From contig NC_088650.1 in the NCBI RefSeq assembly GCF_964019385.1, positions 30,824,550 through 30,888,549 on the forward strand: a stretch of DNA of 64,000 bases. The letters are read 5' to 3'. The notes under the pieces are model-generated. The model had not been told where the DNA came from. It ran no database searches and worked only from the letters and a program-made list of their open reading frames with translations. Made by a program: the position numbers and the translations under genes. Origin of the DNA: Sycon ciliatum. Taxonomy: Eukaryota > Porifera > Calcarea > Leucosolenida > Sycettidae. Numbering within the stretch: the first letter of the stretch is position 1; the number at the start of each line of letters is the position of its first letter. Of this stretch, positions 9,401 through 15,400 are shown piece after piece.

Positions 9401-12400
9401 AGTAAACTGATGAGGTGCAGAAGGCATCAATGCCTGTGCCTGTGGTGAAGTGAAATGAAGATAACATAACATGACAATCATGTAAGTAATCGCTGTCGCA
9501 CTAACCGTAAACGGTACTTTTCACCAGGATCTTTGCCCAGGTCAAACACTATCGGTGCCAGGGTGTTGTTGACTTGATCATGTGTGGTCACGTTGGCGAT
9601 GTCTTCACCCGGACAGAAGTCCGTACCCTAATGGCATGCCGAACGGAAGACAAAACAACACATGCGTTGATTTGCCTACACTTGCGCTCTCGGTGAAATC
9701 CGACCCCAAGTGCAAAACCGGTGCCCTCTAACGATTCTGATGACATCATTGTATTTGTAAATGTGTACGTTCAGCCGCATTTGTACCACTTCCAGGGCAT
9801 CAAGGGGTGTGCAAATTGAGGTGCCAAATATACACTGTGGATCTGATTTCACCGAGCGCAACTGTACTATAAGATGAAAAGAGGAATAAACACACTGACT
9901 GCATGCACAGCACTGTTCAGTATTGTTGTTCAGGCTGATATTATTTGTCACTGCCTTATGCACAGGCTGTACCCTGGTCACAGTTATTGACATGCTGAAC
10001 CAACCTTCTGGAACTCCGCCAAGCTATTCGTCCATGTCCAGTAGTGAGCCTTGTACATGCCGACACGCACTGCCATCATCTCATTGCCACGGTAATAGAA
10101 GATTGGTCTGTCCACCGGTGTATTGTTGAAGAGTGCTGGTGCCAGGCTGATGCCGTCAATGATACGATCCTGTGGTAGCTCAATACCAGCTAGGTCTAGA
10201 CTTGTACTGAACCAGTCCATCAGATTGCCTAGCTGGTGGCTGATCTGGACAAGCATACATTCAGACACACATCACATATCAGTATGGATCTTGTTCTAAA
10301 CACAACTCTCAACTCTCCCAGGCTTATCAGTAAGGATTATTGCGAAAATCATGGATACCGTTCTCACTTGATTAGAAGCCCCTCTCAAATAAAAGCCCCT
10401 CTTGAATAATAGCCCCCCCCCCCCCCCTACAAGGACTCTCCTTCTCACCACCACCACCACCATCAGTTCGCGCCTGGCGCCTGGTCGATGCATGGCTGGC
10501 GGTAACCGGCATAGCAGGCTGGTACATCAAGTAGCGCATGGCACATAGATGATGACACAGCAACGACATAGCTCGATTGCGACGTACGTTTCGTCCCCGC
10601 TGGACTCATCAGGCAATCTTCTTCTTGGATGTCTTCATACGGAGCTTGACTCGGGAGAATGAAGTCGAAGACACCACTGCAGCTGTACTTATGGTTGATA
10701 AATATGGTGGTAAAGACACACCTGGCAATATGGCGGTAAACACACGCCTGCCCACACACGCTCTCTAGGCTGCAAAGTTCTGGCACAGAGCTCTCCTTCT
10801 CACCACCACCACCACCATCAGTTCGCGCCTGGTCGATGCATGGCTGGCGGTAACCGGCATAGCAGGCTGGTACATCAAGTAGCGCATGGCACATAGATGA
10901 TGACACAGCAACGACATAGCTCGATTGCGACGTACGTTTCGTCCCCGCTGGACTCATCAGGCAATCTTCTTCTTGGATGTCTTCATACGGAGCTTGACTC
11001 GGGAGAATGAAGTCGAAGACACCACTGCAGCTGTACTTATGGTTGATAAATGTCATGTCCTGGACATGGACCATATGTATGTAGTGCGCATGCTCGCACG
11101 TGAGCTTGGTCTTTTTCGGATATGGAGTTTGAGACGAACTGAAATCTGTAATGGCCTCGAGTGTGTGTGTGATCGAGCTGGATGAGTCCGAGTAGAACCC
11201 ACCTGGGGTAGGACACAACAACTGGCGACGAAGATATGGCTCGGATATCATCGCTTCAGCCGTTTACCGGCGGCGACTTTGAAGAGTTTGAGGAAAGACT
11301 TGAATTCTATTTCTTTGCCAATGATATTGGAACTGTGGCTGCTTCGGCCAATGCTGCAGACAAGTTGGCTGCCAGCAAGAAAAGGAAGGCTGTATTAGTG
11401 AGTTTGCTGTCTGCGGAAGTCTACTCGATTTTGAGGAGCCTCTGTCTGCCAGCGAAAGTAGCTGACAAGAAACTGTCGGAGATTTGCGATCTTTTGAGGA
11501 AGTATTTTCAACCTGCAATTTCGCAAGTTTCGGCGACGTTCAATTTCCATCAGTTGAAGCAGAAGGAAAATGAGTCGACTGCGGATTTCATCATTCGTCT
11601 GAAGAGATTGGCTGTGAGGTGTGAGTTTGCTGATCACCTCGATCGAGCGCTTCGAGACCAGTTTATTGCTGGCTTGAGCAGCTCATCCACTCGAAATTTC
11701 TTATTGACGAAAGAAGATACTTCGGCACAGTCGTTCAATGACATCGTCAAACTAGCTTTGACGCAGGAATCGGCTGCGCGCGCGGCCGTGCAGCTTACCT
11801 CTCAGCAAGAAGTGCACAAGGTGAATCACCGGCCAGTGGAATCGCGTTCGCAGGCGCAGTCTGGTGTTTCTCGTCAATCTCATCAATCTCGAGAGCAGAG
11901 ATTGTGCTACCGCTGTGGGTCTACTCAACACTTGGCGGATAAGTGCAAACACAAGGCCACTGAGTGTCGTCACTGCCACATGAAGGGGCACTTGGAGCGT
12001 GTTTGTCGGCAGAAATCTACGCCAGGCGCGTCGGTGCACAATGTTGTGACTGATGACGCAGGTGAGCATGAATCTGCTGATCTTGAGTGCATGCCAATGT
12101 TCCACATTTCGGATCAGGGCGAATTGAAGAGCAAATCTGTGCCCTCCTACAAATTGGAAATTGCTGTGAATGATGTTCCTGTTGTAATGGAAATCGACAC
12201 GGGCAGTGGCATTTCAATCATTTCTGTCCATGATTTTGAGTCACTTGGGGTGTCTCGTACAAATTTAACCAAACCGAGTGTACGCATGACCGGTTTTTCT
12301 GGGGCAGAAATCAAATGTATTGGTGAAGGGAAGTTCAATGTCAGCATTGATGGTGTGGAGAAACCAACACTACTCCGTGTGGTGGATAATGGTGGTCCGT

Positions 12401-15400
12401 CATTGTTGGGCAGGGATATGTTGTCCCAATTTACTCTACCGTGGAAACAGATTGTCAATGTCAATCATGTTCAAATGGATGGTAGGAGGAGAGCTCTCAT
12501 TGAGGAATTTGAGGAGCTATTCGATACGACTCAGGTTGGCAAGCTGAGGTCGGCTCAAATCACCCTGAGAGTGGATGATTCTGATCCAATGTTCCACAAG
12601 GCGCGTCCCGTACCGTTCTCTATCACGGAGAAGTACGAGGAGGCTTTGGAGAAATTGGAAGCAGAGGGAGTTATTCGCAAAGTTGAGCACTCCAAATGGG
12701 CATCGCCTACTGTGCCAGTACTGAAATCGGATGGTAGTATCCGAATTTGTGCTGATTACTCTCGCTCAATCAATGCCAAGTCTGATTTGGAGCACTACCC
12801 GCTACCTACTATTGAGGAAATGTTAGCGAAATTGTCGGGGGGAGATAAATTCACCAAATTGGATCTCTCCCAAGCCTATCACCAACTGGAGCTTGATCCA
12901 GCTTCTCGGCCGTACACAACAATCTCTACTCACAAGGGGTTGTATGAATACGTGAGATTGCCGTTTGGCATTCACTCGGCAGTGGCAATTTTCCAACGCA
13001 CAATGGAATCCATATTGGCAGATCTGCCTGGGTGCATCGTCTATGTGGATGACATCTTGATTACTGGGAAGGATGAGGATGAACACCACAACAACCTGAT
13101 CAGGGTACTACGTCGCCTACAGGAGGTCGGGATGAAGCTTAATCCCAGTAAGTTTCATTTCATGATGGATGAGATTTCCTACCTGGGTCACACGATTTCT
13201 AGTGCTGGTGTGGCTCCTACAGCGGATAAGATTGAGGCAATGCGGGACGCTAAGGCTCCTTCGAATGTTATCGAGCTTCAATCATTCATTGGAACGGCGA
13301 ATTTCTTGCGACGGTTCATACCTCATTTCGCAACAATAATGGTACCTCTGTACAATCTGGTGAAGAAATCTGCTGAATGGCAATGGGACCCCGGAATTTC
13401 AGTGCGGCCAAGCTGTCCTGGCTTTGAATTTCGGCAAAGGAGGAGATAAGTGGGCCCCAGCCGTGGTCACGGCAGTTCTCAGTCCGATGACGTATCAGAT
13501 ACAAGTCGGTGATGCAATGTGGAAACGCCATCGCAACCAGCTCCGTCCTCGGCAAATCCCTCAGTTCGATGCAGGGGCGTCTGAGCAGAGTGGAGCAAGT
13601 TTAACAGCTCAGGTTCCGTCACAACCGTCACTCAGCAACAACGACGCCAGTGTCACGGCAGCGGAGCTAGGCGCGCCGGTCTCAGCAACAACCGGTACTA
13701 GTGAGTCTGCGTCCGTTAGCACTTCACGTGCCAGCTACAGCAAGACGTCGTCACCGCAAGCTGAACGACGGTCAACCCGCGCTACTGTTCGACCAGTTCG
13801 TTTCAAGGATTGACGTTCAGAACACTCAGTTCATATGGACCTATTCTAGTCTGTAGAGTTTAAATGATATATTTTGGACTCTGCTGGATATTGTATATAA
13901 TTATATATTTATGGTGTATATATGGTGTATAGTGTATCATGAAATATTATGTCTCGGCAGTTGTGAGTTTTGTGATTGCATCTTGATATGTTTACTATTG
14001 CATAGTTCTAGATGCTTCGCCTCAACTAGTGAGGGGGAAATTGTCATGTCCTGGACATGGACCATATGTATGTAGTGCGCATGCTCGCACGTGAGCTTGG
14101 TCTTTTTCGGATATGGAGTTTGAGACGAACTGAAATCTGTAATGGCCTCGAGTGTGTGTGTGATCGAGCTGGATGAGTCCGAGTAGAACCCACCTGGGGT
14201 AGGACACAACAATAAATATGGTGGTAAAGACACACCTGGCAATATGGCGGTAAACACACGCCTGCCCACACACGCTCTCTAGGCTGCAAAGTTCTGGCAC
14301 AGAGCTCTCCTTCTCACCACCACCACCACCATCAGTTCGCGCCTGGCGCCTGGTCGATGCATGGCTGGCGGTAACCGGCATAGCAGGCTGGTACATCAAG
14401 TAGCGCATGGCACATAGATGATGACACAGCAACGACATAGCTCGATTGTGACGTACGTTTCGTCCCCGCTGGACTCATCAGGCAATCTTCTTCTTGGATG
14501 TCTTCATACGGAGCTTGACTCGGGAGAATGAAGTCGAAGACACCACTGCAGCTGTACTTATGGTTGATAAATATGGTGATAAAGACACACCTGGCAATAT
14601 GGCGGTAAACACACGCCTGCCCACACACGCTCTCTAGGCTGCAAAGTTCTGGCACAGAGCTCTCCTTCTCACCACCACCACCACCATCAGTTCGCGCCTG
14701 GCGCCTGGTCGATGCATGGCTGGCGGTAACCGGCATAGCAGGCTGGTACATCAAGTAGCGCATGGCACATAGATGACACAGCATAGATGACACAGCAACG
14801 ACTTCATTCTCCCGAGTCAAGCTCCGTATGAAGACATCCAAGAAGAAGATTGCCTGATGAGTCCAGCGGGGACGAAACGTACGTCGCAATCGAGCTATGT
14901 CGTTGCTGTGTCATCATCTATGTGCCATGCGCTACTTGATGTACCAGCCTGCTATGCCGGTTACCGCCAGCCATGCATCGACCAGGCGCCAGGCGCGAAC
15001 TGATGGTGGTGGTGGTGGTGAGAAGGAGAGCTCTGTGCCAGAACTTTGCAGCCTAGAGAGCGTGTGTGGGCAGGCGTGTGTTTACCGCCATATTGCCAGG
15101 TGTGTCTTTACCACCATATTTATCAACCTACAAGGACTGTTTGAAAAAATACAAGCCCCTCTTGAATAGAAGTCCGGACTACTATTCGCAAAGCATGGGG
15201 TGACCAGCGAGTGCGATGTATGAAGGTCAAGTGTGCAAAGAACATCTCGTGCATATTCATATTGGTACATGTCCTGGTCGACGTAGTGTGTGCAAACTAA
15301 CTCGGGGCTGAGTTGCTGTGAAAATGAAAGTTTTAGAGATTCGATTGGAATACTGGTATAGAATGAAACAATAAAAGCCCCTCTTGAATAGAAGCCTCCT

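What the first reader, a model, noticed from the sequence alone, without database searches (positions are those of the whole stretch)
10438..15127. Animal retrozyme: hammerhead-bearing tandem array inserted as one unit
A non-coding 348/355 bp repeat carries one complete type I hammerhead per unit: GAUUGC/GCAAUC stem I, CUGAUGA, GUCC/GGAC stem II, GAAA, minimal ACG/CGU stem III, GUC cleavage site. The array is bounded by the 11 bp direct repeat CTACAAGGACT. Self-cleavage would release 348/355 nt monomers. A tandem insertion with a ribozyme per unit is what reverse transcription around a circular RNA would give. Known retrozymes share this logic; this sequence family may be undescribed.
Basis: partly seen in the sequence, partly recalled or inferred. 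Interest (0 to 1): 0.93.

Follow-up and report, generated by a model that had tools for sequence, protein, structure and literature searches.

The report
Sponge retrozyme inserted by Penelope-type machinery
A small self-cutting RNA element in a calcareous sponge has spread through the genome mostly as two back-to-back copies per insertion, the mark of the Penelope-type jumping gene that most likely copies it, which bears on the open question of how animal retrozymes move.

Summary
Three type I hammerheads pass Rfam's cut-off and a fourth falls below it; units are 348/355 bp; an 11-12 bp target duplication flanks the whole. The genome is Sycon ciliatum, a calcareous sponge. Missed: 11051-14211 is a young nested LTR retrotransposon, and the array is two opposed arms, hammerheads on minus at left and plus at right.

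This is the family's habit. Of 41 arrays read, 27 are two-armed head-to-head, none simply tail-to-tail (one has a third block). In 22 of 27, one outer end lies near unit position 242 and the other near 281; none uses one site twice. Target duplications of 11 bp or more occur at 25 of 37 insertions. Four of seven Penelope-like contexts read show the same anatomy, one end longer by the 30-40 bp 'tail'. Published work shows a Penelope protein starting cDNA at two such internal sites and extending both target strands.

A 21-mer variant found nowhere else in the genome is in all five window units covering it, on both arms. Best reading: one circular RNA copied from both target strands by Penelope machinery. 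The window's left end (position 145) breaks the rule.

The parts
10427..10437 (.). left target-site duplication CTACAAGGACT (12 bp if the preceding C is counted)
   Evidence: only two copies in the window, here and at 15128-15138
10438..11050 (-). left arm, outer part (sense/hammerhead strand is minus); outer cDNA start at unit position 145
   Evidence: unit alignments
10575..10618 (-). type I hammerhead, copy 1
   Evidence: Rfam RF00163, 35.4 bits
10923..10966 (-). type I hammerhead, copy 2 (348 bp from copy 1)
   Evidence: Rfam RF00163, 35.4 bits
11051..14211 (+). nested young LTR retrotransposon (Ty3-like by domain content, my reading), LTRs 11051-11220 and 14042-14211 identical, flanked by ATAAA; gag/protease/RT ORF 11236-13449; not part of the retrozyme
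   Evidence: Pfam RVT_1, gag-asp_proteas, Retrotrans_gag; LTR comparison
14212..14802 (-). left arm, inner part after the nested element
   Evidence: unit alignments
14444..14487 (-). hammerhead copy 3 with a changed stem I base, below Rfam cut-off
   Evidence: 29.2 bits against cut-off 34
14799..15128 (+). right arm, inverted relative to the left arm; outer cDNA start at unit position 243 (site A)
14848..14891 (+). type I hammerhead, copy 4, in the right arm
   Evidence: Rfam RF00163, 35.4 bits
15128..15138 (.). right target-site duplication CTACAAGGACT

Best explanation
The array is one insertion of a non-coding animal (non-LTR) retrozyme of the sponge Sycon ciliatum, made by Penelope-like (PLE) RT-endonuclease acting in trans. 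Steps: (1) array transcripts self-cleave at the hammerhead and are ligated to a ~350-nt circle (inferred). (2) A PLE complex, probably a dimer, cuts both target strands with a 3' stagger of about 12 bp (inferred from the duplications). (3) Each 3' end primes cDNA synthesis inside the RNA, one at site A (unit position ~242) and the other at site B (~281); the roughly 40 nt between them corresponds to the 'tail' known from PLEs (start sites read from genome anatomy). (4) Each cDNA runs around the circle for a variable number of laps (multi-unit arms shown; the circle inferred). (5) The two cDNAs are joined head-to-head at no fixed place (shown) and gaps are filled, leaving the duplication (shown).
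For: Of 41 arrays away from locus edges, 27 are '-+' and 0 are '+-'; in the 27, one A end plus one B end in 22, AA 0, BB 0. Check on chromosome C1 with 99 exact hammerhead matches: neighbours within 1.5 kb are '-+' 10, '+-' 0, same-strand 21. Target duplications of 11 bp or more in 25 of 37, null 3 of 1332. Elements with RT and GIY-YIG in one ORF exist in the genome; 4 of 7 such contexts read are two-armed, each with one longer (tail) and one shorter end. Their duplications are 12, 11 and 14 bp for L062, L063 and L068 and 12 bp for L065, read by eye, because the script was given a wrong boundary there and found 5. Published: the Anolis PLE cleaves and extends both strands, starts cDNA at two adjacent internal sites, and that interval is the genomic 'tail' (PMC11167929, parts 1-3 of 4 read); rotifer PLEs have inverted pLTRs with a 31-bp tail on one and duplications of 8-10 bp in the cases shown (PMC3846280, passages). 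Single template: the window variant CCGGTTACC (as a 21-mer) lies in 5 of 5 window units on both arms and nowhere else in 538 Mb; an L041 variant has 17 genome copies, all in L041, 3 on one arm and 14 on the other; arm-to-arm divergence 0.78% within loci, 1.42% between, 0 of 2000 permutations as low. The sequence runs through the hammerhead cleavage site: in 58 of 78 strand-sides (39 loci, two strands each), 135 crossings (duplicates and edge arrays included).
Against: The window's left arm starts at position 145, neither A nor B; L033 does the same, and 5 of 27 two-armed arrays have such an 'other' end. 13 of 41 arrays show one arm only, and L029 is '-+-': its third block, 39 bp further on, makes one '+' to '-' step. 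Site ranges A (230-255) and B (274-293) were set, and gap limits were widened by hand for the window and L023. Of 67 arm-level private variants at positions covered by both arms, only 24 are shared by the other arm; L010, L019 and L033 have arms about 5% different. Sequence likeness of the retrozyme tail to PLE tails is weak: as good or better scores in 51, 1223 and 716 of 13148 background windows for three PLE families, 96 for the sum; for two of the three families another part of the unit scores as high or higher. Unanchored comparison is not significant in 6 of 6 tests. PLE hammerheads were recognised by eye only; Rfam found none in the contexts. No source names these ORFs Penelope; that rests on RT plus GIY-YIG and anatomy. 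In vitro the Anolis PLE showed no difference in start site between strands and no need for hammerhead cleavage. The circle itself was not observed. The unit's fold is not more stable than shuffles.
Confidence: 0.76

Rival explanations
1. Same PLE machinery, but the template is an uncleaved multimeric linear transcript rather than a circle.
For: In vitro a PLE uses unprocessed RNA and hammerhead mutants do not impair insertion (PMC11167929). Multi-unit donors exist in the genome, e.g. 5 evenly spaced copies of one variant at C5:19807569-19808998.
Against: Variants private to one locus recur through it on both arms (5 of 5 units; 17 of 17 genome copies in one locus) with no donor array in this assembly; a circle explains this directly. 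Two other variants tested were not private.
Confidence: 0.17
2. LINE-type machinery with twin priming made the inversions.
For: Inverted 5' ends and duplications of this length also occur with LINEs (recalled); a LINE-like ORF lies at 22797-25403.
Against: Twin priming (recalled) predicts one fixed 3' end and one variable outer end; here both outer ends fall in two narrow ranges about 40 nt apart in 22 of 27, and 4 PLE copies share this.
Confidence: 0.04
3. Snap-back self-priming of one cDNA (the self-priming model proposed for rotifer PLEs) made the palindromic arms.
For: Proposed for inverted PLE copies (PMC3846280).
Against: The inner arm ends coincide within 15 nt in only 3 of 27, 2.4 expected by chance, and the outer ends differ systematically.
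Confidence: 0.02
4. Ordinary satellite DNA amplified and inverted by recombination, with a hammerhead as a relic.
For: Some loci are segmental duplications (L043, L045 and L046 share flanks).
Against: Dispersed on at least 12 contigs with target duplications and preferred end points.
Confidence: 0.01

Closest known systems
Animal non-LTR retrozymes (Cervera and de la Pena 2020, PMC7229834, parts 1-4 of 6 read)
   Same: type I hammerhead, non-coding tandem unit of a few hundred bp, target duplications longer than 4 bp, no LTR of its own; PLEs present in the same genome
   Different: described there as tandem copies with the mobiliser left open (LINE or PLE suggested); here most insertions read are two opposed arms with paired start sites; G+C about 52-53% against the below 45-50% reported
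Penelope-like elements (Anolis Poseidon, PMC11167929; Adineta Penelope, PMC3846280)
   Same: head-to-head arms, one arm with a 30-40 bp tail, short target duplication, start of cDNA inside the RNA
   Different: the retrozyme encodes no protein; duplications here are mostly 12-13 bp (8-10 bp in the rotifer passages read)
Plant LTR retrozymes (PMC4918200 and PMC7761336, passages)
   Same: hammerhead, circular RNA logic, non-autonomous
   Different: plant ones have type III hammerheads, LTRs, PBS/PPT and 4-bp duplications

Membership tests
animal non-LTR retrozyme | canonical type I hammerhead in each repeat | tested here: met
   3 copies above Rfam cut-off, 1 weakened; 1188 motifs within 3 mismatches genome-wide, reversed control 0
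animal non-LTR retrozyme | tandem repeat of about 150-450 bp | tested here: met
   348-361 bp in 69 full units from 25 loci
animal non-LTR retrozyme | non-coding | tested here: met
   unit lengths 348, 351, 352, 355, 358 change the frame between loci; the 348-nt unit has one frame without stop, the 351-nt unit tested does not
animal non-LTR retrozyme | target duplication longer than 4 bp | tested here: met
   25 of 37 with 11 bp or more
animal non-LTR retrozyme | low G+C (a typical rather than a defining trait) | tested here: not met
   52-53% in 6 units; reported values are below 45-50%
animal non-LTR retrozyme | highly self-paired RNA | tested here: inconclusive
   65-66% paired but z +1.1 and +1.6 (less stable than shuffles), 2 units tested
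animal non-LTR retrozyme | self-cleavage and circular RNA in tissue | not testable with these tools
   no RNA data
Penelope-like element | ORF with RT and GIY-YIG endonuclease | tested here: not met
   the retrozyme unit has no such ORF; hence not a PLE. ORFs with GIY-YIG, one with a sub-threshold RVT_1 match, lie elsewhere in the genome, and relatives of the other carry RVT_1, some with GIY-YIG
Penelope-like element | insertion signature: opposed arms, tail on one end only | tested here: met
   22 of 27 two-armed arrays; 4 of 4 two-armed PLEs, out of 7 contexts read. The window itself meets it at the right end only

The most novel reading that the evidence does not exclude
Every insertion is made by a two-subunit Penelope complex that copies one and the same RNA circle from both target strands at once, one subunit always starting at site A and the other at site B, each running several laps; animal retrozymes in general are thus parasites of Penelope elements, and the optional PLE 'tail' is the trace of an obligatory asymmetry.
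Probability: 0.5. Interest if true: 0.88.

Novelty: new variant of a known kind. Interest (0 to 1): 0.76.

Why it matters
How animal retrozymes move has been left open, with LINEs or PLEs named only as candidates (PMC7229834). The paired start sites tie a retrozyme to PLE machinery through insertion anatomy, explain the PLE tail as one of two concerted starts, and give natural replicates (multi-unit arms with private variants) of reverse transcription around a circle. It can be tested by in vitro priming with a PLE protein and by scanning coral, mussel and axolotl retrozymes for opposed arms.

Tried and rejected
Simple satellite, LINE twin priming and snap-back were considered and set aside (see rivals). 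A direct sequence match between the retrozyme and PLE 3' regions was sought: unanchored local alignment gave nothing in 6 of 6 tests; tail against tail gave weak support for one PLE family and little for two. A shared closing stem (UUUGCAG with CUGCA) enclosing the start site appears in the folds of two PLE families and, shorter, a third, and in the linear fold of retrozyme 150-300; but no fold was clearly more stable than shuffles (z -1.6 to 0.0), and in circular folds of five retrozyme units the stem has at most 11% probability, so I do not lean on it. A genome search with a PLE 3' end was meant to count two-armed PLE copies by coordinates; it scored 40 of 583 candidates and misses even the known second arms of L062 and L063, so it tests nothing. 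A second hammerhead repeat (226-bp family, L048) was looked at as a second case: no inverted arm in the one locus read; its other loci could not be fetched. A first private-variant pattern was badly chosen (present in one unit only); the L025 variant proved common (44 copies) and the L039 variant not private (13 copies), so 2 of 4 loci tested support the single-template argument at genome level. L067 showed a short inverted match but it lies beyond the element's end, so it is not counted as two-armed. A solved-structure search with a PLE ORF gave 0 matches. The sponge/retrozyme paper search matched 3,069 papers with two loose terms and says nothing.
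Full report
Organism. A 738-aa protein of the window is 100% identical to a EukProt entry with an scpid label (I recall that label as that of the Sycon ciliatum proteome). A PLE search then returned proteins named 'Sycon ciliatum', one of them on a contig of 28,966,952 bases, exactly the length of contig C12 here; two others lie on a contig 1,000 bases longer than C1. The window is C9:30824550-30888549 of a 538-Mb genome. Sycon ciliatum is a calcareous sponge.

The locus. Three hammerheads pass Rfam's cut-off and one falls below it. 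The element lies between two copies of CTACAAGGACT. An LTR element with identical 170-bp LTRs sits inside it at 11051-14211, flanked by ATAAA, with an ORF of gag, protease and RT domains. Beyond that element the array goes on, and from about 14799 it is inverted up to the right-hand duplication.

The family. The unit gives 220 matches in the genome with 40 of 1217 candidates scored and the list cut. Its 44-nt hammerhead occurs 1188 times within 3 mismatches, 0 for the reversed control. I fetched 38 further loci with flanks, and two loci of other hammerheads; with the window that is 39 retrozyme loci. They were the best-scoring ones, so they favour young copies.

Two arms. Position 1 is the first base after the cleavage site. 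One search gives 41 arrays away from locus edges: 27 '-+', 9 '-', 4 '+', 1 '-+-', and no array that is '+-'. In the '-+-' array (L029) the third block lies 39 bp further on and may be another insertion; I did not settle it. In the 27, both outer ends are cDNA starts (3' ends of the sense strand). 22 have one end in A (230-255) and one in B (274-293); A is on the left in 12 and on the right in 10; AA 0, BB 0; 5 have one other end (L018, L019, L024, L033 and the window). The 22 include one old array in L023. These ranges were set. Exact extension in the 15 insertions that could be read gave medians of 242 and 281.5, with three outliers where the exact match stops early. The C1 list of 99 exact hammerheads, not chosen by array shape, gives 10 '-+', 21 same-strand and 0 '+-' neighbours within 1.5 kb.

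Target duplications. I counted 37 insertions: the 41 arrays less an additional array in L018, an old array in L023, and L045 and L046, which duplicate L043. 25 of 37 have a flank match of 11 bp or more, mostly 12-13; mismatched flank pairs reach that in 3 of 1332. A few are simple-sequence targets (L017, L036, L044) and count for less; L018 and L033 show none.

One template. Over 26 two-armed loci, arms of one locus differ by 0.78% (45 of 5777 positions), arms of different loci by 1.42%; none of 2000 permutations was as low (a GTG microsatellite and alignment ends were left out). 14 of 26 loci show no difference, some over short stretches; L010, L019 and L033 show about 5%. Of 67 arm-level private variants, 24 are shared by the other arm; the rest would be later changes or different templates. 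A variant of the window, CCGGTTACC, is in all five units that cover it, four in the left arm and one in the right, and as a 21-mer in no other place of the genome. A deletion variant of L041 has 17 copies in the genome, all in L041, 3 in one arm and 14 in the other. Two other tested variants were not private. A mutation in one circular RNA, copied many times from both ends, explains the private ones; a lost or unassembled donor array is not excluded.

Penelope elements. A GIY-YIG search found 13 places (150 of 944 candidates scored). I read seven in context. Four of seven (L062, L063, L065, L068) consist of opposed arms, each with one longer and one shorter outer end; the difference is about 31-41 nt by inspection. 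Duplications are 12, 11 and 14 bp for L062, L063 and L068; for L065 the script used a wrong boundary and gave 5, and reading by eye gives 12. L064, L066 and L067 showed no second arm. Of two ORFs scanned, both carry GIY-YIG and one an RVT_1 match below Pfam's cut-off. Relatives of the other carry RVT_1, and some of them GIY-YIG. No source names these proteins Penelope; I call them so from domains and anatomy.

Literature. PMC11167929 (parts 1-3 of 4 read): the Anolis PLE cleaves and extends both strands and starts cDNA at two adjacent internal sites, whose interval is the genomic tail; it saw no strand difference in start site in vitro and no need for hammerhead cleavage. PMC3846280 (passages): rotifer PLEs with inverted pLTRs and a 31-bp tail on one of them. 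PMC7229834 (parts 1-4 of 6): animal retrozymes, mobiliser open. PMC4918200 (passages): 15-bp duplications at Nematostella repeats. PMC8490949, PMC7761336 and PMC6431247: passages only. Searches: Sycon with hammerhead ribozyme 0 papers; PLE with twin priming 0; Penelope with 34-bp and TPRT 0; hammerhead, PLE, inverted and target duplication 5; retrozyme with PLE and tail or circRNA 19; retrozyme, inverted and Penelope 3; PLE tails with head-to-head 11, 10 listed. Of these I opened only the papers named above; among the rest, PMC11722881 and PMC8969392 hold the words retrozyme and Penelope and were not opened. I saw no statement that ties a retrozyme to PLE start sites, in an open-access library only.

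Judgement. The element is a family of animal retrozyme for which I found no description; the new part is its insertion anatomy. I put PLE-type machinery at over 90% and, within it, a circular template at about 80%. The window itself keeps the rule at its right end and breaks it at its left.

Noticed in passing
window 5012-5181 and 28817-28864: Copies of a second, unrelated hammerhead repeat (226-bp family seen in L048); Rfam HH9 at 5108-5182, 29.7 bits, below cut-off.
   Followed up: partly
window 5181-5700: 280-bp tandem dimer, each with a tRNA-like sequence that ARAGORN calls Pyl (CTA); similar copies in L062, L066, L067 and L068 suggest a tRNA-derived SINE.
   Followed up: partly
window 11051-14211: Young LTR element nested in the array, LTRs identical; the ORF found by Pfam ends after RT, so by inspection the rest of pol looks deleted.
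   Followed up: partly
window 30419-43152: Four ORFs with an alpha-kinase domain in a cluster, three of them with a VWA match (one below cut-off).
   Followed up: no
window 22797-25403: LINE-like ORF with endonuclease and RT domains.
   Followed up: no
L043, L045, L046: Three places share the same flank and retrozyme insertion, i.e. a segmental duplication of one event.
   Followed up: partly
G000 C1:69381577-69586191: Run of same-strand hammerheads at spacings of several kb, probably a large tandem duplication.
   Followed up: no
window 10581-10928: The 348-nt unit has one sense frame with no stop, so a circle of it would be an endless ORF; not kept in the 351-nt unit tested, and 352/355-nt units shift frame each lap.
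   Followed up: partly
window and L033, left ends: Both start at unit position 145 while the other end is at A: a possible third start site.
   Followed up: no
L029:2594-2694: A third retrozyme block on the minus strand 39 bp after a two-armed array, perhaps a neighbouring insertion.
   Followed up: no
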